This document shows positions 953 through 18,470 of a stretch of DNA of 45,803 nt, piece after piece. The notes under the pieces were generated by a model, which saw nothing but the letters and a program-made list of their open reading frames with translations, was not told the DNA's origin and made no database searches. Both the position numbers and the translations under genes were made by a program. The stretch's first letter is position 1; each line of letters opens with the position of its first letter. The stretch lies in the NCBI GenBank assembly GCA_001899205.1, contig MKVL01000033.1, positions 1 through 45,803 of the forward strand, given 5' to 3'. The DNA comes from Mesorhizobium sp. 65-26 (GTDB lineage Bacteria > Pseudomonadota > Alphaproteobacteria > Rhizobiales > Rhizobiaceae).

Positions 953-1162
953 TACATTCTCCTCGCATGCGCCGGCGCTTCCTGGTGGCCATCCGCCAAG
1001 AGCTCCAGTCTGCCACAGACGGCGTTGGCGTTTTTTTGCAAATTTTCCGGTCTCGCGCGTTTTTTTGTCAATTGGTGCGCATGTTCACGGAATTTTTGCA
1101 TCCGCCTGCCGATAGCCTCTCATCAATAAGATAATCCAGGGTGGGACAATCGGGAGGAACGG
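953..1162. promoter_or_regulatory. divergent promoter region, lactonase-like gene and BMP importer
   Basis: This is a 210-base spacer between two divergent genes. It holds T-rich runs near 1031-1037 and 1060-1066, unusual in this GC-rich window. On the minus strand TTGACA can be read at 1071-1066 as a -35 element for the lactonase-like gene, but only a weak -10 (GAAAAT-like) lies at suitable spacing. GGGAGGAAC before 1163 is a clear ribosome binding site for the importer. No operator symmetry was recognised. Confidence 0.35.
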
Positions 1163-2161: not shown

Positions 2162-2178
2162 CGAGCGCCGCGAAGGCC

Positions 2179-3720: not shown

Positions 3721-4790
3721 GACTGGTCGCCCGGCCGAACCGCAATTCGCCCCTGCGCGATGCCATGATGCCGGTGGCGGCGGTTGCCGCCAGCCTGCTC
3801 ATCTGCGCCGTGCTCATCCTGCTCGCCGGCGCCAATCCGCTCACCGCTTTCGGCATCATGGCCAAGGCCGCCTTCTGGGGAAAGTTCGCGCTGACCGAGA
3901 CCCTGGCGCGCGCCGCCCCGCTGATTCTTTCAGGTCTCGCCGCGCTGGTGGCGTTGCGGACGCGCTTCTGGAACATCGGCGGCGAGGGGCAGATCATCGT
4001 CGGCGCCATGGCGGCCGCCTGGGTCGGGGCCCTGACGAGCCTGCCCACGCCGCTCCTCATCCCTTTCATGCTGATCGGCGCGGCGCTTGCCGGGGCAGCG
4101 CTCGCCGCCGTCCCGGCCTCGCTCAAGACGCGGCTCGGCGTTGACGAGGTGGTCAGCACGCTGATGCTCAACTTCATCGTCATGTATCTGATGCAGGCGC
4201 TGCTCTCGGGGCCGTGGAAGGATCCGGTCACCGGCTGGACGAACAGCCCCAGCATCCTGAGGGCGGCCGAGTTCCCGGTGTTCTGGAAGGGCACGCGGCT
4301 GCATCTGGGCGTGCTCGTGGCTTTCCTCGCCGTCGGCGTGGTCGGCGTGATCATGAAGCGCACCACGCTTGGCCTGTCGATGAAGATCGTCGGCGAGAAC
4401 CCCAGGGCGGCGCGCCATGCAGGCCTCGACGTCACCCGCGTCACGCTGGCCGCGGCGCTCCTGTCGGGGGCGCTGGCCGGACTGGCCGGCGCCGGCGAGA
4501 TCGGCGGCATCCAGTTCCAGGTCATCGCCTCGATCTCTTCCGGCTACGGCTATGCCGGCATCGTCGTGGCCATGCTTGCCCGCCTCTCGGCTGCGGGCAT
4601 CATTCCGGCGGCGCTGTTCATCGCCGCCATCACCACCGGCGCCGACGAGATGTCGCGCCAGACCGGGGTGCCCTTCTTCATCGCCGACGCCATGCAGGGA
4701 ATCTGCCTGATCGCCGTGCTCGTGGCGATGACGCTATCGCGCTACCAGATACGTTTCCGCACCTCCCCCGAACGCAGGGCCACACCGTGA
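3717..4790 (+). CDS. ABC transporter permease 1 (BPD_transp_2 family)
   Basis: The 357-residue integral membrane protein has about eight to ten hydrophobic segments and the family motif WNIGGEGQ near residue 82. A second family region, [14 protein letters not shown], lies in the cytoplasmic loop that contacts the ATPase. This type forms the inner-membrane channel of BMP-type nucleoside importers together with a second permease. The start overlaps the ATPase stop (ATGA). The stop overlaps the GTG start of the next permease (GTGA), so the four genes form one tight operon. Function follows from family and context; the substrate is unknown. Confidence 0.93.
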
Positions 4791-5728: not shown

Positions 5729-5794
5729 GGCGACGGTCTCCGAGTCTGGCTCGATGAAAAACGTTAGCCGGCGAAGTTATAGTCCGAGCTGGGA

Positions 5795-6286
5795 TCAATC
5801 CAGGAAATCAGCGTCGCTCTTGTCCGCTAGATAGCCGGCCAGCGCGCGCGACGCCTCGGCCTTCACGGCCGCGGCGATCCAGTGGGAGAACATCTCGTCG
5901 TCGCGTGGCTCGAGCCCGGCGCAGGCCACCACGATGCCCTCCAGCACGGCACTGCCCGAATAGACCGTGTCGCCGGCAAGCAGGTGATGCGCGGCAAGTG
6001 CTGCGGTCGGCAGTCCGGTCCGCGCCGACATCTCCGCCTTCTTCAGCGCGATCTCCATGTTGGGGTAGGGAGAACGCGACAGATCGCCGATCGAGGTCAC
6101 CAGGTGGCAGCGCTCTCGGAAATGCGCCGCATCCTTGCCAGGCGCCGGGTCGATCGCCGGCGTCGCCGCCACCACGATCGCGCAGCCGGCACGGTCCGGC
6201 ATCGCCTGGCGCATCATCAGTTCCAGCGCCGGCCGGATCTTGTCGAAGGCGCGTCGCGCCAGGGTCTCGTTCAGGATCGATGCCAT
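5795..6286 (-). CDS. small GlcG/HbpS-like protein of the 13-gene catabolic block
   Basis: The 163-residue protein is not confidently recognised. The C-terminal half (KAEMSARTGLPTA, then YSGSAVLEGIVVACAGLEP and a helix with MFSHWIAAAVKAEA) resembles the GlcG/HbpS (DUF336) fold. In that fold a KA..A..TG.PT helix precedes a G-rich strand pair and a final helix. It lacks a signal peptide, so it should be cytoplasmic, unlike the secreted relative at 20800. The ATG at 6286 has a GGGAGGC-like ribosome site; the frame stays open upstream only as a shadow of the neighbour. It is the last gene of the block, 11 bases after the GGT-like gene. GlcG-like proteins often end catabolic operons without a settled role. 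Confidence 0.75.
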   Translation of the reverse strand: MASILNETLARRAFDKIRPALELMMRQAMPDRAGCAIVVAATPAIDPAPGKDAAHFRERCHLVTSIGDLSRSPYPNMEIALKKAEMSARTGLPTAALAAHHLLAGDTVYSGSAVLEGIVVACAGLEPRDDEMFSHWIAAAVKAEASRALAGYLADKSDADFLD

Positions 6287-6297
6287 TCTTGCCTCCC

Positions 6298-7770
6298 TCA
6301 GACGATGCCGGCCCAGGTGGTGCGGCGCCAGTCGGCGCAGGCGATCGGTGCGCCGTCGACGATGCCGGCTGCAGTCACCGCGCCGGCGCGCATGTCGCCA
6401 TCCGGCATCTCGACCACGTCGTGACCAAGCCCCGCCAGCTCCGCCTTGTGGGGGTGGCTCTTCTCGACCAGCAGCTTGCCGTTCTCGCTGCGCCAGCGCG
6501 GACGGTCGATCGCCTTGGCAAGGTCGACCTTCTCGATCGCCAGGCCGCTGATCACCTGGAGCAGCGTCTGCACCTGGCCGTCGGCGCCAGGCGTCGACAG
6601 CGCGAGCGGGCCGCGCGGCGTCTCGAGGATCGCCGGCGCCAGCGTATGGACGGGCCGCTTGCCGGGGGCCGCGTCGTTGGGCGCGGCGGTGAAGCCGCCG
6701 GCGCGGTTGTTGAGGGTAAAGCCGCATTCGGGAACGAACACGCCTGAGCCGAAATCGTCGAAAACGCTGACCAGAGAGGAGATGCAGCAGCCATGGCGAT
6801 CGGCGACGGAGACGCCGGCGGTGTGGAGATAGGCGCGTGGGCCGCCGCGGTTCGACGCCCTGTCGAGGTCGAGCGTCAGAGGCTCCGACAAGAGGCGTTC
6901 GCCCTCGGCGATGCGGTCGCGGAAGGCGAAGCTGGCCTCCGTCAGCTCAATGCCGGCATGGTCGATCCTGTTGCGCGGGATGTCGCCCAGCGCCGACAGC
7001 GCCTTGGCCGACATGGCCAGCAGCAGGCCCTGTGAGATCGGCGGCTGCACCATCAGCCGCATGCCCCTGAACTCGACGGCGACCGGATCGTCGACGACGG
7101 TGCGGTGCGCCTGCAGGTCCTCCATGGCCAGTGCCCCGCCATGCGCCCGCACGGCCCGGACGATGGCCTCGGCGCAAACGCCGGAATAGAAGGCGTGGTC
7201 GCCCTCCTTGCCGATGCGGTCCAGCGTCATGGCAAGCTCTTCCTGGACGACGAGGTCGCCCGCCGACGCCGAAAGCAGGACCCACTCCGCCGCGCCGTTG
7301 CGCTCCAGCCTGCCGCGATGCTTCTGCACGGCGGCGGCCAGCGAGGGTGGCACTTGCATCTTCAGCCGCGCCAGCCTTATCGCTGGCTGCAGCACCAGAT
7401 GCAGCGGCAGCCGGCCATAGTCGTCGAGCACCGCGCACCAGGCACCGACCATGCCGGGCACCGTCACGCTGGCGCCGCCATCGTCGGAGACGGACTTGAG
7501 CTTGCCGGGCGCCGCGCCCGTGCCGTTGAAGGCGCGGGTGCGCCCGCCGGGCTCCCGCACCAGGCACAGCATGTCGCCGCCAAGGCCGCAGGCCTGCGGC
7601 GCTACAACGGCCAGCACGGCCTGCGCCGCCACCAGCGCGTCGGCCGCACTGCCGCCGGCGGTGAGGATTTCCTGCGCCGCCGCCGCCGCGAACGGGTCGG
7701 CCGCCGCAACGGCGCCGCCGCGCCCGATCAGTACCGGTCTTTCCCTCGATGCGAAAGCATCGGCAAGCAT
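6298..7770 (-). CDS. gamma-glutamyltransferase-family protein (Ntn hydrolase)
   Basis: The 490-residue protein is GGT-like. The N-terminal part has AQEILTAGGSAADALVAAQ and ACGLGGDM. A region near residues 341-356 (GSGVFVPECGFTLNNR) matches the small-subunit core. In the known family the precursor cleaves itself before a threonine, which becomes the nucleophile in a TTH.SV.D motif. Here that place reads TAGVSVAD, keeping the threonine (residue 317) but replacing the next Thr-His. No signal peptide is seen, whereas classical GGTs are periplasmic, so an intracellular hydrolase of a gamma-glutamyl or related amide is likely. The start at 7770 has GGAGG five bases upstream. An earlier ATG at 7794 overlaps the SDR stop (ATGA) and is an alternative. 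The protein is shorter than typical GGT (about 530-580 residues). Confidence 0.88.
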   Translation of the reverse strand: MLADAFASRERPVLIGRGGAVAAADPFAAAAAQEILTAGGSAADALVAAQAVLAVVAPQACGLGGDMLCLVREPGGRTRAFNGTGAAPGKLKSVSDDGGASVTVPGMVGAWCAVLDDYGRLPLHLVLQPAIRLARLKMQVPPSLAAAVQKHRGRLERNGAAEWVLLSASAGDLVVQEELAMTLDRIGKEGDHAFYSGVCAEAIVRAVRAHGGALAMEDLQAHRTVVDDPVAVEFRGMRLMVQPPISQGLLLAMSAKALSALGDIPRNRIDHAGIELTEASFAFRDRIAEGERLLSEPLTLDLDRASNRGGPRAYLHTAGVSVADRHGCCISSLVSVFDDFGSGVFVPECGFTLNNRAGGFTAAPNDAAPGKRPVHTLAPAILETPRGPLALSTPGADGQVQTLLQVISGLAIEKVDLAKAIDRPRWRSENGKLLVEKSHPHKAELAGLGHDVVEMPDGDMRAGAVTAAGIVDGAPIACADWRRTTWAGIV

Positions 7771-7790
7771 TGTGTCCTCCCAAGGTCTCG

Positions 7791-8534
7791 TCATACCGCT
7801 GTGTATCCCCCATCGACGACGATCGACGTGCCGGTCACGTAGCGCGAAGCCGGCGAAGCCAGGAACAGAACCGTTCCCGCGACATCCTCCGGCACGCCCT
7901 GCCGGCGCATCGGTATCTGCCGCAGCAACTCCCGCTCGGCCGCGGCCGGGTCGGCCTGGAACGACCAGAAGGAGCTGTTGAACGGCGTGTCGATCCAGCC
8001 CGGCAGCAGGCAGTTGACCCGGGTGCCCTGCGCGGCGAGTTCGTCGGCAAGCGCGCGGCAGAGCCCGAGCAGCCCCGATTTCGTCGCGTGATAGGCGGGC
8101 ATGCCGGCATGTCCGCGCAGCGCGCCGGTCGAGGCGGTGAAGATGATGCTGCCATTGTTCGAGCGCGCCAGGGCCGGCGCCGCCGCCTGGGCAAGAAAGA
8201 AGGGGCTCGACAGGTTCAGCGCGAGCGACCTGTTCCAGCGCTGCGGAGTCCAATCCTGCAGCGGAGCCGATTCCAGGATCGCCGCATTGGCGAAGACGCA
8301 GTCCAGCCCGCCGAAAGCGTCCAGCGCGGCTTCGACAGCCACGCGCGGTCCGTCATCGGTGGAAAGATCGCAGGCGAAGGCGCGCGCCTCGCCCTTGCCC
8401 GGCTCCGCCGCCACCTGCGCGGCGCGCGCGCCGTCAATGTCGGCGAGCAGCACGCTGTCGCCTTGCGCGCGGAAAGCGCGCAGCGCCGCGAGGCCGATGC
8501 CGGACGATCCGCCCGCGATCAGAACGACACCCAT
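7791..8534 (-). CDS. SDR-family oxidoreductase 1
   Basis: The 247-residue classical short-chain dehydrogenase has the cofactor motif GGSSGIG (residues 8-14), NAA near 83, and catalytic Ser135, Tyr148 and Lys152 (YHATK). An acidic residue after the second strand (ADID) suggests NAD preference. The length is normal and the C-terminus ends in the family's VDGGYTAV. It starts three bases after the M20 gene stop and lies within 20 bases of the GGT-like gene. It probably oxidises or reduces a hydroxyl or keto group in the pathway of this block; the exact substrate cannot be read from sequence. It is a distant paralogue of the SDR at 9776. Confidence 0.9.
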   Translation of the reverse strand: MGVVLIAGGSSGIGLAALRAFRAQGDSVLLADIDGARAAQVAAEPGKGEARAFACDLSTDDGPRVAVEAALDAFGGLDCVFANAAILESAPLQDWTPQRWNRSLALNLSSPFFLAQAAAPALARSNNGSIIFTASTGALRGHAGMPAYHATKSGLLGLCRALADELAAQGTRVNCLLPGWIDTPFNSSFWSFQADPAAAERELLRQIPMRRQGVPEDVAGTVLFLASPASRYVTGTSIVVDGGYTAV

Positions 8535-8537
8535 CGA

Positions 8538-9776
8538 TCACTCCTTCGGATGGTGGCTGGAGAGGGCGCAGAGACCGAGCGCGGCGGTCATGTAGACGGC
8601 CACGCAATCCACCACGTCGTCCTCGAAAACATGGTCGTCGATGCCGGAGGCGAGTTCCGCCTGCGGCCCGTAGCAGATCGCCGGAATGCCCCTTGCGCGC
8701 CAGCGGGCGGCGTCGCTGGCCGGCAGCCGCACAACCGGCAGGGCCGGCCTGCCGCGCACGCCCTCGCTGGCGGCGAGCATGGCCTGGCTGAGCGGATGGT
8801 CGATGGCCGTCCAGTTGGGGTTCCAGCCCTTGATGCGTCGCACCGCGATGCCGCCGATACGCGCGGCCTCGGCCGTCAGCCGCGCTTCCACGGCTTCGAT
8901 GGTGAGGCCTGGCGGCACGCGGAAATCGATCTCGGCGCCGGCGCGGGTGGCGACCTGGCTGACGAAGCCGTCGGCGCGAAGGGTCCCGACGTTCGCCGAA
9001 AGCCTCAACCCATGCTCGCCGGCACCTTGCGCAAGGCGCGCCATGGCGGCGGGCGGAGCCACCTGCTCCTCGTTCCAGGCATCGATCGCGCCGATGAATT
9101 TCGCCAGCCGCGCCGTGGCGGAGGTGCCGGCACCGGTCAGCATGCCCTGGCCACCGGGCGCCGAAGCCTCGACCTCGACCCAGAGCAGGCCCTTCTCGGC
9201 GACCGCGACGTTCATGTGCCCAGGCCCCTCTGCGTTGATCAGCAGGTCGCCGGCGAGATCCGGTTCCCGGTCGAGCAGATAGGCGGCGCCGTCCGGGCCG
9301 AACACGACCTCGTCGGCGACGAGGGTGAGCGTGACCCGGCCACGCAGCCTGGAGCGCAATCCGTGCAGTCCGGTGAAGGCCATGGCGAGCGCCGCCACGC
9401 CAGCCTTCATGTTGCCGATGCCGAGGCCGGTCAGCCGCCCGTCGCGGCGGCCCATTTCGAAGATGGGCACCGACCAGGCGCTGGCGTCGCCGGGATTCAG
9501 CGTATCGAGATGTCCGTTGAGGACGAGATGCGGGCCGGGTTCCGCGCCCTCGAAGGAACATACCAGATTGGGCTTGCCGGGCGTGGCGGCGACGATCCGC
9601 GCCTGCAGGCCGGTTTCCCTGAGGAAGGCGCTTAGCACCCCCGCGGGCGCGGTGGTGTCGCCCACCGGCTGCGGGCTGCGCGCCGCGACCAACCGCGCGC
9701 AGAGGTCGACCAGGCGCTCGCGCCCGGCCTGCGCGAAATGCCTCGCGGCCTCGATGTCCCCTCCGGCCAGGATCAT
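8538..9776 (-). CDS. M20-family peptidase/deacylase with altered metal site
   Basis: The 412-residue M20 (ArgE/DapE/CPG2-type) hydrolase family normally uses two zinc ions to cleave amide bonds of N-acyl amino acids. The first motif NGHLDT (His89, Asp91) is intact. The usual bridging-Asp motif G.G..DMK.G reads GIGNMKAG, with Asn122 in place of Asp. The DEE motif reads ADEVV: the general base Glu156 is kept but the next metal ligand is Val157. Glu183 and the C-terminal His382 (DDHVFED) are present. It may use one metal, bind metal differently, or have drifted in function. The start is ATG at 9776, overlapping the upstream SDR stop by one base (TGATG). The long upstream extension of the frame is a shadow of the SDR. 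It is the likely amide-splitting enzyme of this block. Confidence 0.88.
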   Translation of the reverse strand: MILAGGDIEAARHFAQAGRERLVDLCARLVAARSPQPVGDTTAPAGVLSAFLRETGLQARIVAATPGKPNLVCSFEGAEPGPHLVLNGHLDTLNPGDASAWSVPIFEMGRRDGRLTGLGIGNMKAGVAALAMAFTGLHGLRSRLRGRVTLTLVADEVVFGPDGAAYLLDREPDLAGDLLINAEGPGHMNVAVAEKGLLWVEVEASAPGGQGMLTGAGTSATARLAKFIGAIDAWNEEQVAPPAAMARLAQGAGEHGLRLSANVGTLRADGFVSQVATRAGAEIDFRVPPGLTIEAVEARLTAEAARIGGIAVRRIKGWNPNWTAIDHPLSQAMLAASEGVRGRPALPVVRLPASDAARWRARGIPAICYGPQAELASGIDDHVFEDDVVDCVAVYMTAALGLCALSSHHPKE

Positions 9777-10573
9777 CAGCCGACCTGCCAACCGCCGTCG
9801 ATGACCAGCGACTGGCCGACGACGTAGCGCGCCAGCTCGGACGCCAGGTAGACATAGGCGCCGGCCAGTTCCTCCAGCGGGCCGAGCCTGCCGACCGGAA
9901 TGCGCGCCTCGAAGGCGCTTCGCAGGGCTTCCGCGCTGGTGCCTTGCAGCACGGCGCGTTCGCTGAACAGCGACTGGATCATCTGGGTGTCGATCTGCCC
10001 GGGGCAGACGCAATTGACCAGGATTCCCTTCTCCGCCAGCTCCGCCGCGAGACTCTGCATCAGGCCGATCATGCCGAACTTGGATGCCGAATAGGCGCTG
10101 TTCTCGCGTCCACCGCGCACGCCGAACAGCGACGCGGTGAAGATGATGCGGCCGGGCGTGCCGGCCGCCACCATGCGCCGCGCGAACGAGGTCGCGGTGA
10201 TGAAGGCGCCGGTCAGGTTCACGTCGAGCACCCGGCGCCAGGTCGCGAGGTCGGTGTCGATGCCGTGCTTCAGCACGAGGATGCCGGCGTTGGGGACCAC
10301 GATGTCGACGCCGCCGTTCGAGAACAGCCTGTCGGCAAGCGCCTCGGTGGCGTCGAGGTCCGTCACGTTGAGGGCGACGAGCTCGGCCCGCCCCGGCGCC
10401 AGCGCCTCCAGGCGCCCCCGCGCCGCCTCCAGCGAGCGGGCGTCGATGTCGGCGGCGACAACCCTGGCGCCTTGCCGCAGGAAAGCTTCCGCCACGGCCA
10501 GTCCGATGCCCTGGGCGCCGCCGGTGATGAACGCGGTCTTGCCCGCGAGCAGGGAATTGCCGTGATCTTCCAT
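9776..10573 (-). CDS. SDR-family oxidoreductase 2
   Basis: The 265-residue classical short-chain dehydrogenase has GGAQGIG (residues 18-24), ADID after strand two (NAD type), NAG near 95, and catalytic Ser148, Tyr161 and Lys165 (YSASK). The C-terminus is VIDGGWQVG. The ATG is preceded by GGAGACAGGAA, a good ribosome site. It sits 14 bases after the ammonia-lyase gene and is coupled to the M20 gene. Having two SDRs within one operon suggests two redox steps or two stereoisomers of one hydroxy or keto intermediate. The substrate is not inferable. Confidence 0.92.
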   Translation of the reverse strand: MEDHGNSLLAGKTAFITGGAQGIGLAVAEAFLRQGARVVAADIDARSLEAARGRLEALAPGRAELVALNVTDLDATEALADRLFSNGGVDIVVPNAGILVLKHGIDTDLATWRRVLDVNLTGAFITATSFARRMVAAGTPGRIIFTASLFGVRGGRENSAYSASKFGMIGLMQSLAAELAEKGILVNCVCPGQIDTQMIQSLFSERAVLQGTSAEALRSAFEARIPVGRLGPLEELAGAYVYLASELARYVVGQSLVIDGGWQVG

Positions 10574-10587
10574 TTCCTGTCTCCTTC

Positions 10588-11805
10588 TCAGGCTGCCACG
10601 CTCTCGGAGGCGCGGCCGACGATGCGCTGGTAGGCATCCTCGTCGGTCGCTCCCTCGCTGCCGATGGTCACGATGCGCGATTGCGGTCCGATGCCCAGCG
10701 CCGCGCGCAGTTGCGGATCGAGCGCCGCCGCGATCAGGCCGGCCACGGCGGCGCAGCCGGATTCGCCGGCGACGATCGCCGGGTCGCCGGCAACGCCCTC
10801 GGCCAGCACCCGCATTGCCTCGGGAGCAGCCTCCTCGGGCAGCGCGATGACGCTGTCGATGGCGTGCTGCAGGATGACCCAGGCCGGCGCCGAAACCTCG
10901 CCCGCCGCCAGGCAGGCCATCACCGTGTTGGTGTCCCCGGGCACCGGCGTCGGCCGGCCCGCGGCTATGCTGCGGAAGACGCAGTCCGCCCGCTGCGGCT
11001 CGACCACGACGATGTTCGGGCGCTCGGCGCCGAGCAGGTCCCAGTAATGGGCCGCGACCGCCGCCGCGAGGCCGCCGACGCCGGCCTGGACGAACACATG
11101 CGTCGGCCTTTGCGCGCCCAGCTGGGCGAGGATCTCGTCAGCGATGATTGTGTAGCCCTGCATGATCAGGGACGGGACATGGGCGTCCGCCTCGCCTGAC
11201 GTGTCGCCGGCGAGGTGCCAGCCGTTGGCGGCCGAATCCGCCGCGCAGGCCTGGACCGAGTCGTCATAGTGCCCCTTGACGCGCACGATGCGGGCGTCGA
11301 AGCGCGCGATCTCGCGCTCCCGGGCAAGGCTGACATGCTCGTGCAGGTAGATGATGCACTGGCAGCCGAACATCTGGGCGCCCCAGGCGACCGAACGGCC
11401 ATGATTGCCGTCCGTAGCCGCCGCGACGATGACCTTCTCGATCAGCGCACGGTGCTTGCCGGCGATCAGGTCGGCGGCGGTCACGTGCTCGATTACCCCC
11501 TGGGCTGCCAGGTATTCCTGCAGGATCGCCAGCACCGCGTAGGCGCCGCCGATGGCCTTGAAGCTCTTCAGCCCCAGGCGTTGCCCCTCGTCCTTGTAGA
11601 ATATCTCGCCGACGCCAAGCTGGCGCGCCAGGCCCGTGAGCTCCACGAGCGGGGTCTTCTCATAGCCAGGCCAGGACGAGATCTCGGCATGGGCCTTGCG
11701 GAAGCCCTCCCGGCTCAGAACGCGTCGCTCGCACTCGCCATAGGGACGAGAACGGTCTGAGTGGGCATTTTGAACGGCCCGTGCGACGAAGCGCTTGAGT
11801 TCCAT
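10588..11805 (-). CDS. dpaL: diaminopropionate ammonia-lyase
   Basis: This 405-residue fold-type II PLP enzyme is of the DAPAL/YgeX group. The PLP lysine lies in GLKSFKAIGGAYAV (Lys83 by this start). A glycine-rich phosphate loop is seen in VQAGVGGLAAAVAAHY. The C-terminal GSEGATDED is typical of the group. The known reaction converts 2,3-diaminopropionate to pyruvate and two ammonia; relatives act on other beta-substituted alanines. Two start codons are possible. The ATG at 11814 lies only one base after GGAGG, so 11805 (nine bases after it) is preferred. It follows the binding-protein gene by 58 bases. It is the key clue that the imported compound yields a beta-amino-substituted alanine. 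Confidence 0.88.
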   Translation of the reverse strand: MELKRFVARAVQNAHSDRSRPYGECERRVLSREGFRKAHAEISSWPGYEKTPLVELTGLARQLGVGEIFYKDEGQRLGLKSFKAIGGAYAVLAILQEYLAAQGVIEHVTAADLIAGKHRALIEKVIVAAATDGNHGRSVAWGAQMFGCQCIIYLHEHVSLAREREIARFDARIVRVKGHYDDSVQACAADSAANGWHLAGDTSGEADAHVPSLIMQGYTIIADEILAQLGAQRPTHVFVQAGVGGLAAAVAAHYWDLLGAERPNIVVVEPQRADCVFRSIAAGRPTPVPGDTNTVMACLAAGEVSAPAWVILQHAIDSVIALPEEAAPEAMRVLAEGVAGDPAIVAGESGCAAVAGLIAAALDPQLRAALGIGPQSRIVTIGSEGATDEDAYQRIVGRASESVAA

Positions 11806-11863
11806 GAATTTCATTCCTCCGAAAAATGGGCCGGGCAGGTCGATGCCCGGCCCCGGGTCTCGA

Positions 11864-12685
11864 TTACTTTCGCTTCGCCAGTTCCTCGAACCACTTGTCG
11901 CGCAACTTGACGTTCTCGCCGGTGCGCACGACGTCGCGGATGAAGGTGTTGAGGAAGTTCAGGAAATGCTGGTCGCCGGGCCGGATCGCGTAGGCGAGGC
12001 CGACCGGCTTCACCAGCGCGTCCTCGCCGTTGAGGACGTTGATGCGCTTGGCGAGCGCCGGGCTGCGCAACTGCAGGAGCTTCAGCGTGCCGGGATCGAT
12101 GAAGGCGGCGTCGGCCTGGCCGGATGCCACCTCGCCGATCCATGCGGCGATGTCATTGGTCACCACGCCGCGCACGTTCGCCTGCGGGTAGAGCTCCTTC
12201 GGGTAGCTTTCCTCGACGGTGCCGCTTTCGCCGACGAAGGTCACCTTGGAAGAGTTGAGCGCGTCGAGCGAGGTCGGGCCCGACTTGGCGTTGGCGACGA
12301 TGTGGAAGCCATAGGTGAAGTACGGCTCGGTGAAGTCGACGACGACCGCCCGCTCCGGCGTCGCGAAGAGGTTGGCGAACACGGCGTCGTACTGGCTGGC
12401 CTGCAGTCCCGGGATGATCGTCGCCCAGCTGGCGGGCACGATCTCGAGGCGTACGCCAAGGACCTTCGCCACCTGCTGGGCGAGGTCGACGTTGAAACCC
12501 TCATACTGGCCACTGGTCGGGTTCGGCGACTGCCATGGCGGGCTTTCGGCCATGCCGACGCGGAACACGCCACGGTCCTTGATTTCCTGGAGAAGGTCGG
12601 CCGCGAAGGACGGTGCGGCGGCCAGTGCGACGACAAGCGCCAGAAGAAGCTTTGCCAGTCCAAATCTGCATATCAGTGTTTTCAT
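11864..12685 (-). CDS. polar amino acid ABC transporter substrate-binding protein
   Basis: The 273-residue SBP_bac_3 family protein has a clear Sec signal peptide (hydrophobic stretch then PSFAA, cleavage near residue 25). The mature part begins with DRGVFRVGMAESPPW. It has GFNVDLAQQVAK, then DAVFANLFATPERA, a binding-site region where Arg and Asp commonly hold the alpha-amino acid group. The start at 12685 has AAGGGG upstream; a start eleven codons earlier would place charged residues before the signal. It works with the two permeases encoded just upstream. No ABC ATPase of this class is in the window, so one must be supplied from elsewhere or shared. This protein decides which amino-acid-like compound the block takes up. 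Confidence 0.92.
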   Translation of the reverse strand: MKTLICRFGLAKLLLALVVALAAAPSFAADLLQEIKDRGVFRVGMAESPPWQSPNPTSGQYEGFNVDLAQQVAKVLGVRLEIVPASWATIIPGLQASQYDAVFANLFATPERAVVVDFTEPYFTYGFHIVANAKSGPTSLDALNSSKVTFVGESGTVEESYPKELYPQANVRGVVTNDIAAWIGEVASGQADAAFIDPGTLKLLQLRSPALAKRINVLNGEDALVKPVGLAYAIRPGDQHFLNFLNTFIRDVVRTGENVKLRDKWFEELAKRK

Positions 12686-12728
12686 TTTTTCATTCCCCTT
12701 TGGTTGGTTCGTTGGCACGGGACGCGGA

Positions 12729-13445
12729 TCAGGCCGCTCCCCGTGGAAGTTTCAGCCGGCTGAAGAAGCTGGCCTTCGCAACGCGTGGGAGCGCATTGCG
12801 GTCACCCAATCGGTGTTCGAGCCGACGGGCATAGAGCGTTACCGGGAAGATCAGGGCGAAGTAGATGATGGCGATCGCCGACAGGAACGAGATGTACTGG
12901 TAGGTCTTGCCGCCGAGCAGGTAGGCCTGCAGCGACAGGTCCATGACGCCGATGGCCGACAGCAGGGTCGTGTTCTTGAGGAACTCGGAGAAGTAGTTGA
13001 CCAGCGGCGCGATCACGAGGCGCAGCGCCTGCGGCAGGATCACCAGCGTCCATTTCGGAAAGGCCCTGAGCCCCAGCGACTCCGCCGCTTCCCGCTGGCC
13101 CTTCGGCACCGCCTCGATGCCGGCGCGGAAGATCTCCGCCAGATAGGCCGCGGCGATCAGCCCGAGCACCACCGAGCCGGCCCAGAAGCCGGACACGCTG
13201 GCGTCGAAGATCAGCGGGATGCAGTAATAGGCCCAGAAGATAAGGATCACTTCCGGCGTTATGCGGAAGAACAGGATGTAGCCGCGCGCCATGCCGCGCA
13301 GCAGCCGCAGCCGGCCGATGCGCAGCGCGCAGATCGCGCTGCCGAAGACGATGCCGATGATGGCGCCGACCAGCGCGATTGCCAGCGTGACCTTGACGCC
13401 GTCGAACAGCGCGTCGCTGTTGCGCAGGACGAGTTCAAAGTCCAT
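12729..13445 (-). CDS. amino acid ABC transporter permease 2 (HisM/GlnP family)
   Basis: The 238-residue membrane protein has about five transmembrane helices and the family's conserved loop (EAAESLGLRAFPKWTLVILPQALR), which docks the ATPase. The ATG at 13445 is chosen because GGGGGA stands six bases upstream and the membrane part starts just after it. It overlaps the preceding permease gene by 11 bases. It would pair with that permease as a heterodimer in the inner membrane. It is followed, 43 bases on, by the binding protein. Confidence 0.92.
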   Translation of the reverse strand: MDFELVLRNSDALFDGVKVTLAIALVGAIIGIVFGSAICALRIGRLRLLRGMARGYILFFRITPEVILIFWAYYCIPLIFDASVSGFWAGSVVLGLIAAAYLAEIFRAGIEAVPKGQREAAESLGLRAFPKWTLVILPQALRLVIAPLVNYFSEFLKNTTLLSAIGVMDLSLQAYLLGGKTYQYISFLSAIAIIYFALIFPVTLYARRLEHRLGDRNALPRVAKASFFSRLKLPRGAA

Positions 13446-14130
13446 GGGCGGTCCCCCGCTTGAGGGCACGCTCGGCATAGTAGCCGGCCGTGCTGATGAC
13501 TGCGCCCACCACGAAGGCGAGCATGGCCGCGGTGGTGTAGATCTCGACCGGCTGGAAGGTGAAGGTGGAGAGCCTGCTTGCCGTCCTGAGCAGGTCGTCT
13601 ATGGCCAGGATCGACAGGATGGTGGTGGCCTTGAAGATGCTGATGATGGTGCCGACCAGCGGCGGCAGCATCAGGCGGATCGCCTGCGGCAGGATCACCT
13701 TGCGCCAGGTGGCGTAGGGGCGCATGCCCAGCGCCCGCGCCGCCTCGAACTGGCCCTTGCCGACCCCGAGGATGCCGCCCCGGATGATCTCGCTGCAATA
13801 GGCGGCGACGTTGAAGATCAGGGCGATGGAAGCACTCTGGAACGGCGAGGTGGCGATGCCGGTGAGCCCGGGCACGGCGAAATGCACCCAGATCGCCTGG
13901 ACGAGCAGGGGTGTCGACCGCCAGAACTCGACGAAGGCGAGCGCCGGCCAGCGGATGATGCGATGCGAGGAGAGATTGGCCAGCGCCAGGGTGGTGCCGA
14001 CGACGATGCCGCCGCACAGGAAGCCAATGGCGGTCAGCAGGACGTTGATGAGCAGCCCGCCAAGCAGCACCGGGAGGTAGGTCCACGCGACCGAGAAATC
14101 CAGCGACTGTAGGAAGGCGTAGTCGATCAT
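13435..14130 (-). CDS. amino acid ABC transporter permease 1 (HisQ family)
   Basis: The 231-residue membrane protein has the HisMQ-type signature EAARALGMRPYATWRKVILP and about five transmembrane helices (first at residues 15-40). The ATG at 14130 gives the family length. The frame extends upstream only into the VOC gene region and has no membrane character there. The ribosome site is weak. It forms an importer with the next permease and the binding protein at 11864. It lies 53 bases after the VOC gene, same strand. Confidence 0.9.
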   Translation of the reverse strand: MIDYAFLQSLDFSVAWTYLPVLLGGLLINVLLTAIGFLCGGIVVGTTLALANLSSHRIIRWPALAFVEFWRSTPLLVQAIWVHFAVPGLTGIATSPFQSASIALIFNVAAYCSEIIRGGILGVGKGQFEAARALGMRPYATWRKVILPQAIRLMLPPLVGTIISIFKATTILSILAIDDLLRTASRLSTFTFQPVEIYTTAAMLAFVVGAVISTAGYYAERALKRGTAHGL

Positions 14131-14183
14131 CGACGCTGCTCGACCGGTTGACCTGGGACGCGCATCATGGCCGCTCGCTCCCT

Positions 14184-14717
14184 TCAGCGTCCGGGAAAGC
14201 CGGGATGCCACAGCCGCCGGGCCGGCGAATCCGCCTCACCCTTGCCGGCCGGATAGCTGACCAGCTCGAACTGCATGCCCCAGGGCGAAAGGAAGTAGAC
14301 CCAGAGCGAGCCTTTAGCCGGGCCGGAGTCGATCCGCTGGATCTCGCCCTGCACGGTCACGCCCTCGGCGCGCAGATGCGCCACCGCCGCCTCGATGTCG
14401 TCGACATAGAAGGCGATGTGGTGGCCGCCTATGTCGCTGTTGCGCGGCGGCTCCGGAGACTGTTGCGGCGCCGAATACTCGAAGACCTCGAAGTTCGGGC
14501 CGTTCGCGCAACGCACGAAACCCCAGCGGAAGCTGGAACGGCGGTCGACGCCGATCTGCCGTTCCATGAAGTCGGGATCGGAATAGACGCCGCCGTCGAG
14601 GATGAATTCGCAGCCGATGACGCGCACGAAGAAATCGATCGCGGCATCGAAGTCGGGCACTGTGATGCCGACATGCTCGGCGCCCCGCAGTCCTGGCAGT
14701 CCGCCGGATTTGCCCAT
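14184..14717 (-). CDS. VOC-superfamily (glyoxalase/dioxygenase fold) protein
   Basis: The 177-residue protein has two beta-alpha-beta-beta-beta modules of the vicinal oxygen chelate fold. The first starts AEHVGITVPDFDAAIDFF and the second GGHHIAFYVDDIEAAVAHL. Candidate metal ligands are His15, a His in GGHH and the Glu of MQFELVSY. Family members include glyoxalase I, epimerases and extradiol dioxygenases, so the reaction cannot be named. It sits two bases after the acoC stop, which ties the aco genes to the importer genes. It might handle an aldehyde or a methylmalonyl-like intermediate, by inference only. Confidence 0.88.
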   Translation of the reverse strand: MGKSGGLPGLRGAEHVGITVPDFDAAIDFFVRVIGCEFILDGGVYSDPDFMERQIGVDRRSSFRWGFVRCANGPNFEVFEYSAPQQSPEPPRNSDIGGHHIAFYVDDIEAAVAHLRAEGVTVQGEIQRIDSGPAKGSLWVYFLSPWGMQFELVSYPAGKGEADSPARRLWHPGFPGR

Positions 14718-14719
14718 GG

Positions 14720-15856
14720 TCAGCGGTCCGCGCCGGCGAGATGGGCGGCAAGCATACGGTTGACGGCCGCCGCTGCTTCCATCATCGGCATGTGGCCGGC
14801 GTCGGCCACACGCTCGACCTTTATGTTAGCCGGCAAGCCGTCGGCCTGGGCGGCGGGGATGACGCGGTCCTTCTCGCCCCAGACGGCCAGCACCGGCGCC
14901 TGCGTCGCCGCCAGCGCGTCGCGCAGGTCGATCGCCTGCCTGCCGCCGCTCGCCAGGTTGCGCGCGATGGCGCCGAGCGCTTCCGGAACGCCATCCAGCC
15001 GCTTGAAGCGCAGCACGTTCTCCACCATCTCGGCGCTCATCGCATCCGGGTCGGCGAAGAGCCTGGAAAGCACTTCCTTCATCGGCTTGCGCCGGTCGGC
15101 GGCGAGGAAGCCGTCGATGTAGTCGCTCGATATCTCCCCGCCGAGGCCGGCGGGCGCCAGCAGGCCGAGCGAGGCGACCCGGTCGGGCGCCGAGGCCGCG
15201 ACCGACAGTGCCACGGCTCCGCCGAGCGAATGGCCGACGAGATGCGCCCTGGCGATGCCCAGCGCGTCCAGCGCCGCGACCACCGCCTCGGCGAGCTCGT
15301 CCAGCTTGCCGGACGGTACCGTCGGCGCCGAACCGCCATGGGCGGGCAGGTCGAGGACGTGGACCGGCCGGTCCTTGGCGAGCGCGTCCTGCGTGAACAG
15401 CCAGGTCCCGCCGTCGCCGCCGAAACCGTGGATCAGCACCACCGGCGTGGCGTCGCCGTCACCTATGCTCAGCACGTTCAGCTGGTGCGGGCCAGCCTCG
15501 ACGACGCGCGGCGTCGGGTAGGCATCGGCATCGTCGCCGGCTGCTCCCGCCCGTTCGGCATAGCCCGCCACGAAGGCATCGACCTCGCTGTCGGGAACAC
15601 TCGTCTCGGCGACGACCGCCAGCAGCGCCCCAACCGGGGCGGTCGCGCCCTCCTCGACCACGATGCGGCGCAGCAGGCCGCTGACGTGCCCCTCGACCAC
15701 GTTGGTGATCTTTTCGGTCTCGACTTCCATGATCTCCTGGCCGGTGGCGATGCGTTCGCCTTCCTTGACCAGCCAGGCGGAGAGGCGGCCCTCGGTCATG
15801 GTCATGCCCCACTTAGGCATGGTGATCGGCTGCAGTTGCGCGTCCATCGTCGTCAT
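14720..15856 (-). CDS. acoC: AcoC-type lipoyl-domain/alpha-beta hydrolase fusion (E2)
   Basis: The 378-residue fusion begins with a lipoyl domain (residues 8-82) carrying the lipoylation lysine Lys49 in ETEKIT. An alpha/beta hydrolase domain follows, with nucleophile Ser210 (GHSLGG), Asp330 and His355. This layout is typical of AcoC, the acyltransferase of acetoin dehydrogenase, which passes an acetyl group to CoA. The ATG at 15856 overlaps the acoB stop (ATGA). A second ATG three codons on (15847) is better spaced from CAGGAA and may be used. The E3 (dihydrolipoamide dehydrogenase) gene is not nearby, so that subunit would be shared with other complexes. Confidence 0.9.
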   Translation of the reverse strand: MTTMDAQLQPITMPKWGMTMTEGRLSAWLVKEGERIATGQEIMEVETEKITNVVEGHVSGLLRRIVVEEGATAPVGALLAVVAETSVPDSEVDAFVAGYAERAGAAGDDADAYPTPRVVEAGPHQLNVLSIGDGDATPVVLIHGFGGDGGTWLFTQDALAKDRPVHVLDLPAHGGSAPTVPSGKLDELAEAVVAALDALGIARAHLVGHSLGGAVALSVAASAPDRVASLGLLAPAGLGGEISSDYIDGFLAADRRKPMKEVLSRLFADPDAMSAEMVENVLRFKRLDGVPEALGAIARNLASGGRQAIDLRDALAATQAPVLAVWGEKDRVIPAAQADGLPANIKVERVADAGHMPMMEAAAAVNRMLAAHLAGADR

Positions 15857-16866
15857 TTCCTGTAGGCCATGGTCTTGCGGACGGCTTCGGCGATGCGCTT
15901 GGCATCCGGCAGGTAAGCCGCCTCGAGATTGGGGGCGTAAGGCACCGGCGTGTGCGGCGCGGTCACCTTCATGATCGGCGCCTTCAGCGCGCCGAAGGCG
16001 TTCTCGGCGATGATCGAGGAGATGTCGGCGGCCATGCCGCAACGCGGATTGGCCTCGTCGACGATGACCACCCGGCCCGTCTCCTCCGCCGTTTCGAGGA
16101 TGGTGTCCTCGTCCAGCGGCGAGGTGGTCCTCGGGTCGACGACCGTGCAGTCGATGCCCTCCGCCGCGAGGATGGCGGTGGCCTCCTGCGCGAAATGCAC
16201 CATGCGCCCGAAGGCGATGATGGTGGCGTCGCCGCCCTCGCGCAGCACGTTGGCTTCGCCGAACGGTATGGCATAGGCGCCGTCCGGAACCTCGCCGACC
16301 GTGTCGTAGAGCAGCTTGTTCTCGAGGAAGATGACCGGGTCGTTGTCGCGGATCGCCTGGATCAGCAGGCCCTTGGCGTCATAGGGGCTCGACGGGATCA
16401 CCACCTTCAGGCCCGGCACATGGGTGAAGATAGGGTAGAGCGCCTGGCTGTGCTGGCTGGCCGAGCGGGTGCCCGCGCCATAGGTGGCGCGCAGCACGAA
16501 GGGCGTCACCGCCTTGCCGCCGAACATGTAGCGGAACTTGGCGGCCTGGTTGAAGATTTGGTCGAAGCAGACGCCGAGGAAGTCGACGAACATGATCTCG
16601 GCCACCGGGCGCAGGCCGGTGACGGCGGCGCCAGCCGCCGCGCCGACGAAGGCGCTTTCGGAGATCGGCGTGTCGCGCACGCGCAGCGGCCCGAAGGCGC
16701 CGAGCAGGCCCTTGGTGACGCCGAAGGCGCCGCCCCAGGCATCCTGCTGGCCGGACGCGCCGGCGCCGCCGGCGATGTCCTCGCCGAGCACGATCACCGT
16801 CGGATCGCGGCCCATTTCGTGGTGAAGCGCCTCGTTGAGGGCCTGGCGGAAGGATTTTTGCGGCAT
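15853..16866 (-). CDS. acoB: TPP-dependent acetoin dehydrogenase-type E1 beta
   Basis: The 337-residue transketolase-like pyrimidine domain plus C-terminal domain is typical of E1 beta subunits. Visible features are EDIAGGAG near residue 30, the DTPISESAFVGAAAGAA region and DPRTTSPLDEDTI in the C-terminal half. Together with AcoA it binds TPP at the subunit interface and decarboxylates or cleaves a 2-oxo acid or acetoin. It begins 11 bases after the acoA stop and overlaps acoC. Substrate assignment to acetoin comes from the AcoC fusion partner. A branched 2-oxo acid, or another acyloin from this pathway, is also possible. Confidence 0.92.
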   Translation of the reverse strand: MPQKSFRQALNEALHHEMGRDPTVIVLGEDIAGGAGASGQQDAWGGAFGVTKGLLGAFGPLRVRDTPISESAFVGAAAGAAVTGLRPVAEIMFVDFLGVCFDQIFNQAAKFRYMFGGKAVTPFVLRATYGAGTRSASQHSQALYPIFTHVPGLKVVIPSSPYDAKGLLIQAIRDNDPVIFLENKLLYDTVGEVPDGAYAIPFGEANVLREGGDATIIAFGRMVHFAQEATAILAAEGIDCTVVDPRTTSPLDEDTILETAEETGRVVIVDEANPRCGMAADISSIIAENAFGALKAPIMKVTAPHTPVPYAPNLEAAYLPDAKRIAEAVRKTMAYRK

Positions 16867-16877
16867 GTCTTTCTCGC

Positions 16878-17855
16878 TCAGGGATAACGGACGTAGACGT
16901 CGGTGGTGAGGCTATCGAGCGGCGGCTGGGGCGCGGCCCTGGCGGCCTTGACGGCGCTGTCGATCACGGCCTGGACCTCGGCGTCGACCGCGTCGAGATC
17001 GCTCTCGGCCAGCAGCTTCGCCTCGCCGACGCGGCGACGGAAGGTGGTCAGGCAGTCGCGGTCGCGGCGCATCGCCGCCTTCTCCTCGGCGGTGCGGTAA
17101 TTGTCGGGGTCGCCGCTGAAATGGCCGTAGTAGCGCGGCGTCTCGATGTGCAGCAGCGTCGGTCCCTCGCCGCGGCGCGCCCGCGCCACCGCTTCGGCGG
17201 CGGCGTCGTGCACGGCGAAGAAATCGACCCCGTCGACCTTGGCGAAGGCCATGCCCAACGCGTCGGCGCGCTTGACGATCTCGCCGGCGACGACGAAGGA
17301 GCTCGCCGTCGCCTCGCCGAAGCCGTTGTCCTCGACGGCGAAGATCACCGGCAGTTTCCAGACCTGGGCGAGGTTCATGCTCTCGGCCGTGGTGCCCTGG
17401 TTGATGGCGCCGTCGCCGGAAAAGACGACAGCCACGTCGTCGCGGCCGAGCACCTGCGCGGTCATCGCCGCGCCGCAGGCCAGCGGCGGACCGCCGCCGA
17501 CGATGCCGTTGGCGCCGAGCATGCCCTTGGAGAGGTCGGCGATGTGCATCGAGCCGCCCTTGCCGCGGCAGATGCCGGTGTCCTTGCCGAAGATCTCGGC
17601 CATCATGCCGTGCACGTCGCATCCCTTGGCGATGCAGTGCCCATGGCCGCGATGCGTGGAGGCAATGTTGTCGCTCTGGACGAGATTCATGCACACGCCC
17701 ACCGCCGAGGCTTCCTGCCCGGCGTAGAGGTGGGTGTTGCCCGGAATGTCGCCGCTCGCCATCTCGGCGCTGACGCGATCCTCGAAGACGCGTATCGTCC
17801 GCATCATGCGGTACGCCTCCAGCAGCTTTTCACGTGAAAGTTGCATTCCGGTCAT
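16878..17855 (-). CDS. acoA: TPP-dependent acetoin dehydrogenase-type E1 alpha
   Basis: The 325-residue E1 alpha subunit has the TPP motif GDGAINQG (147-154) through EDNGFG (175-180), and HRGHGH near residue 68. The ATG at 17855 is preceded by CGGAG at six bases. A GTG at 17876 is in frame, but it would put this ribosome site inside the gene. This is the first gene of the minus-strand block. It diverges from the Lrp-type regulator, and the spacer between them carries a perfect inverted repeat. The block would therefore be transcribed from just upstream of here. Confidence 0.93.
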   Translation of the reverse strand: MTGMQLSREKLLEAYRMMRTIRVFEDRVSAEMASGDIPGNTHLYAGQEASAVGVCMNLVQSDNIASTHRGHGHCIAKGCDVHGMMAEIFGKDTGICRGKGGSMHIADLSKGMLGANGIVGGGPPLACGAAMTAQVLGRDDVAVVFSGDGAINQGTTAESMNLAQVWKLPVIFAVEDNGFGEATASSFVVAGEIVKRADALGMAFAKVDGVDFFAVHDAAAEAVARARRGEGPTLLHIETPRYYGHFSGDPDNYRTAEEKAAMRRDRDCLTTFRRRVGEAKLLAESDLDAVDAEVQAVIDSAVKAARAAPQPPLDSLTTDVYVRYP

Positions 17856-17939
17856 ATCGAACTCCGGTACGGCCACAGGATGGGCATCTGGATTGAAGGC
17901 GGCTAGCAGGCCTACGATAGAAGGCAGGTCGCGCGTGAA

Positions 17940-17968
17940 TTTATCAAACGCGCGTCATTTGTGATAAA
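17940..17968. promoter_or_regulatory. inverted repeat, candidate Lrp-type operator
   Basis: TTTATCA (17940-17946) and TGATAAA (17962-17968) form a perfect 7-base inverted repeat around a 15-base spacer. They sit in the 156-base gap between acoA and the divergent Lrp-type gene. A second repeat follows, GATTC (17969-17973) and GAATC (17980-17984). The half-sites are AT-rich in a GC-rich region, which suits Lrp/AsnC operators. Binding by the neighbouring regulator is inferred. Confidence 0.55.
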
Positions 17969-18011
17969 GATTCGCAAAAGAATCGGGAACACGCAAAAAA
18001 GGAGCGTCGCC

Positions 18012-18470
18012 TTGCTCGACAGTTTCGATATCAAACTTCTCAACCTGGTGCAGACGGACACGCGGCGCACCGCCCAGGAGTTGTCCGAGGCGGTCGGCCT
18101 GTCACCATCGGCCTGCCTGCGCCGCCTCAACCGGTTGCGCGAGACCGGCGTCATCGAGGCCGAGATCGCCGTGGTCTCGCCGGCGGCGGTCGGACACCGG
18201 CTGACCATGGTCGTGGAAGTGTCGCTGGAACGCGAACGGCCCGACATCATGAGCGACTTCAAGAAGGCGATGCGCATGACGCCCGAAGTCATCCAGTGCT
18301 ACTATGTGACCGGCGAAGTCGACTTCATCCTCATCGTCGCGGTCAAGAGCATGAGCGACTACGAGACCTTCACCAACGACTTTCTCTTCAACAACAAGAA
18401 CATCAAGCGCTTCAACACTCTGGTCGTCATGGACCGGGTCAAGGTGAGCCTGGCGGTGCCCATCGAGTGA
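18012..18470 (+). CDS. Lrp/AsnC-family transcriptional regulator
   Basis: The 152-residue protein has the N-terminal winged helix (TAQELSEAVGLSPSACLRRLNRLRETGVI, residues about 17-45) and the C-terminal ligand-binding AsnC domain with YYVTGEVDFIL. The start is TTG at 18012, with GGAG seven bases upstream; this gives the usual Lrp length. The longer ATG form at 17961 would add an unrelated basic tail and would read through the inverted repeat. It is divergent from the thirteen-gene block and is its likely regulator. Lrp-type proteins usually respond to an amino acid, which fits the amino-acid importer and ammonia-lyase. Confidence 0.92.
   Translation: MLDSFDIKLLNLVQTDTRRTAQELSEAVGLSPSACLRRLNRLRETGVIEAEIAVVSPAAVGHRLTMVVEVSLERERPDIMSDFKKAMRMTPEVIQCYYVTGEVDFILIVAVKSMSDYETFTNDFLFNNKNIKRFNTLVVMDRVKVSLAVPIE

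What the first reader, a model, noticed from the sequence alone, without database searches (positions are those of the whole stretch)
5795..18470. Thirteen-gene catabolic block with divergent Lrp regulator: an apparently unassigned pathway
Seen: thirteen same-strand genes from acoA (17855) down to the GlcG-like gene (5795), with gaps of at most 58 bases and several overlaps. They encode a TPP/lipoyl complex, a VOC protein, an amino-acid importer without its ATPase, a diaminopropionate ammonia-lyase, two SDRs, an M20 hydrolase and a GGT-like hydrolase. Known: the parts act on amino-acid amides, beta-substituted alanines and acyloins or 2-oxo acids. Inferred: together they could import and split a conjugated amino acid, lyse it to pyruvate and ammonia, and turn the side-chain into acyl-CoA. 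I know of no described pathway with this gene set.
Basis: partly seen in the sequence, partly recalled or inferred. Interest (0 to 1): 0.72.

Follow-up and report, generated by a model that had tools for sequence, protein, structure and literature searches.

The report
Conserved 18-gene amino-acid-conjugate catabolic island
A block of about eighteen neighbouring bacterial genes, kept in the same order in three related bacteria, appears to import and break down a still unknown amino-acid-containing compound, using enzymes whose standard database names are probably misleading.

Summary
In detail: thirteen same-strand genes (17855 to 5795, largest gap 53 bases) with a divergent Lrp gene. The unit is larger than reported: in both relatives it includes the convergent BMP-type ABC importer (1163-5728) and a lactonase-like MBL gene (173-952). 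Both also carry a GMC dehydrogenase that the window lacks. The island is rare: 3 of 394 same-family genomes, own included. It looks composite: a GGT-like/DpaL/M20 core occurs in Azospirillum brasilense (with Lrp) and Bosea vaviloviae, an AcoABC/SDR/DUF336 module on Sinorhizobium and Agrobacterium plasmids. Three labels are doubtful: DpaL lacks the canonical active-site loop, the GGT-like protein lacks gamma-glutamyl-binding residues, and the M20 protein has an altered metal site. Best reading: uptake and stepwise breakdown of an amide-linked, beta-substituted amino acid, its side chain leaving through SDR oxidation and AcoABC cleavage. Substrate unknown; no activity tested.

The parts
173..952 (-). 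MBL-fold hydrolase, AiiA/AttM/4-pyridoxolactonase-like, below every equivalog cut-off
   Evidence: 83% in LA-28, 81% in G953
953..1162 (.). MBL/BMP divergent intergenic region with TTTGC[AG]A motifs
1163..2161 (+). BMP/PnrA-type substrate-binding protein
   Evidence: PF02608 134.3 bits; 80-82% in both relatives
2179..3720 (+). double-ATPase ABC subunit of the BMP importer
   Evidence: PF00005, 2 stretches; 71% in both relatives
3717..4790 (+). permease 1 of the BMP importer
   Evidence: PF02653
4850..5728 (+). permease 2 of the BMP importer; in LA-28 and G953 followed by GMC and GluDH3-like genes that are absent here
   Evidence: PF02653
5795..6286 (-). DUF336 (GlcG/HbpS)-fold protein, no sequence-family hit
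6298..7794 (-). GGT-fold Ntn amidohydrolase; nucleophile Thr kept, gamma-glutamyl pocket residues replaced
   Evidence: PF01019 278.8 bits, TIGR00066 below cut-off, alignments
7791..8534 (-). SDR 2
8538..9776 (-). M20-family protein of a dpaL-linked group with altered metal-site residues
   Evidence: alignment
9776..10573 (-). SDR 1
10588..11814 (-). DpaL-like PLP (fold II) lyase of a divergent clade
11864..12685 (-). amino-acid-type solute-binding protein (family 3)
12729..13445 (-). amino-acid ABC permease B
13435..14130 (-). amino-acid ABC permease A; no ATPase gene for this importer stands in the operon in any of the three genomes
14184..14717 (-). VOC protein; H15, E77/E80, H99/H100, E151 invariant in 3 orthologues
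14720..15856 (-). AcoC-type E2 (lipoyl domain plus alpha/beta hydrolase)
   Evidence: PRK14875 468.8 bits, cut-off 307
15853..16866 (-). E1 beta (AcoB-like)
   Evidence: 90-91% in LA-28, 74-76% to Rm41/CFBP7129
16878..17855 (-). E1 alpha (AcoA-like)
   Evidence: 64.5-65.4% to Rm41/CFBP7129
17856..18011 (.). acoA/lrp intergenic region with a TCGCAAAA half site
18012..18470 (+). Lrp/AsnC regulator (start TTG 18012 preferred over GTG 17961)

Best explanation
Positions 173-18470 are one catabolic island of about eighteen genes plus its Lrp gene. It takes up an amide-linked, beta-substituted amino-acid compound and degrades it to central metabolites. Two importers (amino-acid type and BMP type) bring in the compound or its halves. 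The GGT-fold Ntn hydrolase, perhaps with the M20 protein, opens the amide, and the MBL protein opens a lactone. The divergent DpaL-like enzyme removes ammonia from the freed amino acid by PLP-dependent elimination, giving pyruvate or another 2-oxo acid. The SDRs (and, in relatives, a GMC dehydrogenase) oxidise the side chain to an acyloin-like compound, which the AcoABC complex cleaves to an acyl-CoA and an aldehyde; the DUF336 protein may sense or handle the aldehyde. Shown: the conserved gene order, the families, the replaced active-site residues and one predicted fold. Inferred: every catalytic step, its order, the regulation by Lrp and the substrate.
For: Identical order of all 13 operon genes, BMP importer and MBL, with Lrp next to acoA, in three genomes. 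Rare and patchy: GGT at E<=1e-100 in 3 of 394 and DpaL at E<=1e-200 in 3 of 297 same-family genomes, the same three. Partial modules elsewhere: Lrp | RidA-hydro-lyase-GGT-dpaL-M20-TRAP in A. brasilense, RidA-MFS-GGT-dpaL-M20 in B. vaviloviae, AcoABC-SDR-DUF336 in Rm41 and CFBP7129. RidA acts on 2-aminoacrylate (recalled), which fits an eliminating PLP enzyme in the two plasmid cores. The E2 is AcoC-type above its cut-off. The PLP lysine and two Asp positions (roles recalled) are kept in DpaL. The motif TTTGC[AG]A is enriched in both intergenic regions: 11 matches over six regions, shuffle mean 1.05, 0 of 1000 shuffles as high; BMP side alone 5 matches, mean 0.67, 3 of 2000 as high.
Against: No substrate, transcript or enzyme data. 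The island itself has no RidA gene. The M20 protein may not be a working metallohydrolase. No E3 gene and no ATPase gene for the amino-acid importer lie in the island. The motif was chosen after seeing the sequences, and TCGCAAAA as such is not rare in the window (2 found, 0.93 expected, 27 of 100 shuffles as high). The core occurs without aco in Azospirillum and Bosea and aco without dpaL in Rm41 and CFBP7129, so the two halves could serve separate substrates. A third aco context, P. phymatum, has neither SDR nor DUF336 next to aco, and an M20 relative in Methylobacterium sits with amino-acid ABC genes but no dpaL or GGT. The GMC gene is missing here, so one step seen in relatives is dispensable or replaced.
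Confidence: 0.45

Rival explanations
1. The DpaL-like enzyme works as a dehydratase/deaminase on a beta-hydroxy or beta-substituted amino acid whose side chain stays attached, and the AcoABC-like complex then acts as a 2-oxo-acid dehydrogenase on that product.
For: E1 beta passes a PDH-beta subfamily cut-off (355.8 against 321) and E1 alpha matches a PDH alpha model at 320 bits; the PDB relatives of E1 alpha are PDH and branched-chain or other 2-oxo-acid enzymes (no acetoin enzyme is among the 28 listed); the DpaL loop change suggests an altered substrate.
Against: The E2 is of the acetoin type, and E1 alpha is below the PDH cut-off (320.3 against 393.85); the two closest plasmid aco clusters looked at in detail carry an SDR and DUF336, as acyloin chemistry would suggest.
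Confidence: 0.25
2. Two or three independent systems (amino-acid amide module, aco module, BMP importer with lactonase) were packed side by side and share DNA but not a pathway.
For: Each module is found apart from the others elsewhere.
Against: Interleaving within one tight operon (aco first, GlcG last, four overlaps) and identical order in three genomes; a shared motif in both intergenic regions.
Confidence: 0.2
3. The substrate is a hydroxymethyl-heterocycle (vitamin-B6-like) compound: BMP import, GMC oxidation, SDR to a lactone and MBL lactone opening copy the logic of pyridoxine degradation.
For: The only NCBIfam hit of the BMP protein is a putative B6 binding protein, and the MBL matches 4-pyridoxolactonase (3aj3); the GMC gene is present in both relatives.
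Against: Both scores are far below cut-off (91.6 against 400; 106.9 against 325) and the MBL scores higher with AiiA and AttM; no ring-cleavage gene of that pathway was recognised in the island; GMC is absent from the window.
Confidence: 0.07

Closest known systems
Azospirillum brasilense Sp7 plasmid p3 cluster Lrp | RidA - hydro-lyase - GGT - dpaL - M20 - TRAP
   Same: Divergent Lrp (53%), GGT-fold hydrolase (31%), DpaL (50%), M20 (49%) with the same altered metal-site residues
   Different: Canonical DpaL loop, a GGT that passes TIGR00066 (395.2 against 357.85), TRAP importer instead of ABC, RidA and a D-glutamate-cyclase-like gene added, no aco, SDR, VOC, BMP or MBL; no characterisation of it was seen
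AcoABC-SDR-DUF336 clusters on S. meliloti pRM41A and A. tumefaciens pAtCFBP7129b
   Same: AcoA 64.5-65.4%, AcoB 74-76%, AcoC 46-47%, followed by an SDR and a DUF336 protein
   Different: Sugar-type importers and Gfo/Idh/MocA genes; no dpaL, GGT or M20; DUF336 proteins not detectably similar by BLASTP at 1e-3
Diaminopropionate ammonia-lyase (E. coli, PDB 4d9g)
   Same: Fold-II PLP family; active-site Lys and two Asp positions (roles recalled)
   Different: Loop DTAWEGY replaced by DTSGEAD; TIGR03528 below cut-off
Acetoin dehydrogenase complex (AcoABC)
   Same: E1 alpha/beta and lipoyl-abhydrolase E2
   Different: Own-genome E1 alpha paralogues only 47% or less; no E3 gene; linked to amino-acid genes
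Vitamin B6 degradation pathway I of Mesorhizobium loti (recalled)
   Same: GMC, SDR, MBL and BMP importer types in the relatives
   Different: Scores below equivalog cut-offs

Membership tests
Diaminopropionate ammonia-lyase | NCBIfam NF006058 score over cut-off | tested here: met
   456.8 against 276
Diaminopropionate ammonia-lyase | TIGR03528 equivalog cut-off | tested here: not met
   307.5 against 532.25; the own-genome paralogue, which has the canonical loop, is also below it (320.4)
Diaminopropionate ammonia-lyase | D-T-[SA]-[WY]-x-G-Y loop seen in E. coli and in most alphaproteobacterial enzymes looked at | tested here: not met
   0 of 120 best homologues have it; 21 canonical and 40 altered rows
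Diaminopropionate ammonia-lyase | activity on diaminopropionate | not testable with these tools
   needs enzyme assay
Gamma-glutamyltransferase | GGT fold family and Thr nucleophile | tested here: met
   PF01019 278.8 bits; T325 lies two residues before the aligned stretch, opposite the E. coli nucleophile (residue role recalled)
Gamma-glutamyltransferase | gamma-glutamyl-binding Arg, Asp and Ser-Ser | tested here: not met
   R to T, D to G, SS to HT in the alignment to E. coli GGT (roles recalled); TIGR00066 222.5 against 357.85
Acetoin dehydrogenase complex | AcoC-type E2 | tested here: met
Acetoin dehydrogenase complex | cleavage of acetoin to acetyl-CoA and acetaldehyde | not testable with these tools
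   needs assay
M20 metallohydrolase | M20 sequence family | tested here: met
   PF01546 68.4 bits against 24.6
M20 metallohydrolase | bridging Asp and Glu-Glu of the di-zinc site | tested here: not met
   N and E-V in window, LA-28, G953 and A. brasilense; D and E-E in the only two comparison proteins (roles recalled)
DUF336 (GlcG/HbpS) | fold | tested here: met
DUF336 (GlcG/HbpS) | Pfam PF03928 sequence match | tested here: not met
   no hit at E<=0.001; the Rm41 and CFBP7129 proteins do hit
Vitamin B6 degradation genes | NCBIfam cut-offs of B6 binding protein and pyridoxolactonase | tested here: not met
BMP/PnrA importer | Pfam Bmp, ABC_tran and BPD_transp_2 set | tested here: met

The most novel reading that the evidence does not exclude
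An undescribed pathway in which a new clade of DpaL-like lyases, an Ntn hydrolase that is not a gamma-glutamyltransferase and a TPP/lipoyl complex jointly dismantle an amide-linked beta-substituted alanine, possibly one bearing an N-heterocycle (hence the BMP importer), with side-chain carbon recovered as acyl-CoA.
Probability: 0.28. Interest if true: 0.7.

Novelty: new variant of a known kind. Interest (0 to 1): 0.5.

Why it matters
It gives a bounded, conserved gene set with a rare taxonomic pattern, so the substrate can be found by induction or growth screens. It also suggests that the automatic names 'diaminopropionate ammonia-lyase' and 'gamma-glutamyltransferase' mislead for a whole clade: 0 of the 120 best DpaL homologues listed (one of them 99% identical to the window's own) carries the canonical active-site loop, although sources name many of them diaminopropionate ammonia-lyase.

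Tried and rejected
Gamma-glutamyl conjugate as substrate: pocket residues missing. Oxamate from beta-ODAP (DpaL giving oxamate, GGT-like as oxamate hydrolase): considered from recall; it leaves aco, SDR, BMP and VOC unexplained, and one search found no paper with both of its terms. Allantoate-type M20: the best M20 models are DapE/ArgE-like, all below cut-off. Ectoine pathway: EhuB/EhuC/EhuD models are below cut-off. Plasmid search with the GGT and with the MBL, both at E<=1e-40: no match; the first limit also missed the 31-33% A. brasilense and B. vaviloviae GGTs found later. GlcG-like family as an island marker: order draw 4 of 397 including own, the other three distant proteins (41-44%) with no island on the stretches held, two of which are short contigs of 5.6 and 11.9 kb; class draw 1 of 385, own only. 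DpaL profile in a class draw: 21 of 337 including own at E<=1e-150; none of the 20 other loci shows the island, several being short contigs. 53% and 52% GGT homologues in G109 and G110 sit near genes that look like TRAP transporters (by eye), with no other island gene. Four plasmid dpaL contexts fetched: one without GGT or M20 neighbours, one without annotation, one Lrp/dpaL/amidohydrolase, one with hydantoinase and carbamoylases. Promoter and terminator scan: counts not above shuffles. PDB search of the GlcG-like sequence: no significant match. Literature: the listings showed no description of this gene set; one search listed 9 papers naming M. denitrificans. Only listings with starts of abstracts were seen, plus passages of PMC8153426.
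Full report

The unit is real and larger than reported. A scan of genome contigs with the GGT-like protein, which needs exact short peptide matches, found two loci: one close relative (77%), Mesorhizobium denitrificans LA-28, and one 29% homologue. LA-28 has the thirteen genes in the same order and the convergent BMP importer, the divergent Lrp (89%; 91% over 152 residues) and the MBL gene. Identities in the two relatives run from 57% (GlcG-like, G953) to 91% (Lrp and the aligned part of AcoB, LA-28). No window gene to the right of Lrp has a match in the LA-28 stretches fetched. In both relatives a GMC oxidoreductase and a small gluconate-2-dehydrogenase-subunit-3-like gene (label by eye; no family hit) lie between the two arms. 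The GMC gene is open in G953 and split between frames in LA-28. The window has only 66 bases there, and its genome has no close copy (best 36%).

Distribution. GGT at E<=1e-60: 3 of 121 genomes, the own one and two with 53% and 52% homologues. At E<=1e-100: 3 of 394 same-family genomes, namely own, G953 and G1019, whose contig number and positions match those of LA-28. The DpaL profile found 5 of 297 same-family genomes at E<=1e-150; the three island genomes score below 1e-200, the other two near 1e-155 to 1e-158. G857, of the same genus as LA-28, has no match there. So the island is sporadic. Wider protein lists hold close DpaL homologues in Rhizobium sp. LjRoot30 (85%) and Mycoplana sp. BE70 (83%), neither of which is named among the 120 listed of 1404 GGT rows, and close homologues of both proteins in Nordella sp. 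HKS 07 and metagenomes. By eye, 13 longest-contig lengths recur in both lists of 120 rows, which suggests but does not show linkage.

Altered active sites. In E. coli diaminopropionate ammonia-lyase the aligned loop reads DTAWEGY. The own-genome paralogue and four plasmid enzymes read DTS[WY]xGY, as do the A. brasilense and B. vaviloviae enzymes. Of 14 class-level loops printed, 11 are canonical and three (L078, L080, L092) are not. The island enzyme reads DTSGEAD, and 0 of its 120 best listed homologues has the canonical form. A tree of 61 sequences, two class loci left out because no ORF was found, places the window with 37 other altered-loop rows on one side of a modestly supported branch (83/93). 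One canonical row (L079) and one altered row (L080) branch just outside, and one altered row (L092) sits elsewhere; 3 label changes against a shuffled mean of 17.7. Rows were picked from the closest homologues, so clustering was partly expected. The PLP lysine and two aspartates (roles recalled) are kept. In the GGT-like protein the nucleophile Thr is opposite that of E. coli GGT, but Arg, Asp and Ser-Ser of the gamma-glutamyl pocket (roles recalled) are T, G and HT, and TIGR00066 is below cut-off. The A. brasilense GGT does pass that cut-off (395.2), a point against assuming one chemistry for the whole core. The M20 protein has N for the bridging Asp and E-V for E-E in window, LA-28, G953 and A. 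brasilense, while the two comparison M20 proteins keep D and E-E (roles recalled).

Modules seen elsewhere. A. brasilense Sp7 plasmid p3: divergent Lrp, RidA, D-glutamate-cyclase-like hydro-lyase, GGT, dpaL, M20, TRAP. B. vaviloviae plasmid: RidA, MFS, GGT, dpaL, M20, with the dpaL stretch not annotated and the M20 match in two pieces, so possibly decayed. A third M20 context, Methylobacterium, has amino-acid ABC genes but no dpaL or GGT. S. meliloti pRM41A and A. tumefaciens pAtCFBP7129b: AcoABC, SDR, PF03928 protein, next to sugar-type importers and Gfo/Idh/MocA genes; the third aco context fetched, P. phymatum, lacks the SDR and DUF336 neighbours. BMP importers with an amidohydrolase in Roseateles and Paracoccus plasmids. 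A simpler Lrp/dpaL/amidohydrolase arrangement exists in this genome, on a Bosea plasmid and in L088; gene labels are by eye. Of the 17 further Lrp-family matches in the own genome, the dpaL-paired one is the closest to the island Lrp (51%; next by score 38%).

Regulation. The motif TTTGC[AG]A occurs 11 times in six intergenic regions (two per genome) against a shuffle mean of 1.05, 0 of 1000 shuffles as high; 4 of the 11 are in one G953 region. In the BMP-side regions alone it occurs 5 times, 3 of 2000 shuffles as high; six other stretches between called genes of the window held 1 match in all. The motif was chosen after looking at the sequences, so this is a lead, not proof of an Lrp operator.

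Mechanism. The best-supported reading is given in Best explanation. DUF336 genes are noted in glycolate and 1,2-propanediol utilisation clusters, and EfgA senses formaldehyde (PMC8153426, passages read). This fits an aldehyde-producing AcoABC step but does not show it; the same passages say that HbpS senses haem, so the fold does not fix the function. The substrate stays open. The BMP/GMC/SDR/MBL set resembles the opening of vitamin B6 degradation in logic (recalled), yet the scores are below cut-off.

Verdict. A genuine, rare, conserved and probably catabolic island, composite in make-up, with at least three automatic labels that look misleading.

Noticed in passing
window 8772-8841: ARAGORN calls a tRNA-Ile (gat) on the + strand inside the M20 gene; probably a false call.
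   Followed up: no
L012 9746-12778 (G000:C10): Second dpaL (50%) with its own divergent Lrp (about 50%), an N-carbamoyl-type hydrolase and an M20D-like amidohydrolase (labels by eye) in the same genome.
   Followed up: partly
G000 whole genome: 14 further matches to the island AcoA besides itself, all at 47% identity or less, two of them pieces of one place.
   Followed up: no
L013 12419-14028: GMC oxidoreductase of LA-28 is split between two frames, while the G953 orthologue is open.
   Followed up: partly
L111 14001-25966: S. meliloti pRM41A carries two AcoABC sets with the same AcoB protein accession.
   Followed up: no
window 18556-20684: A histidine kinase and a response regulator follow Lrp; neither has a match in the LA-28 stretches, so they are not part of the conserved island.
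   Followed up: yes
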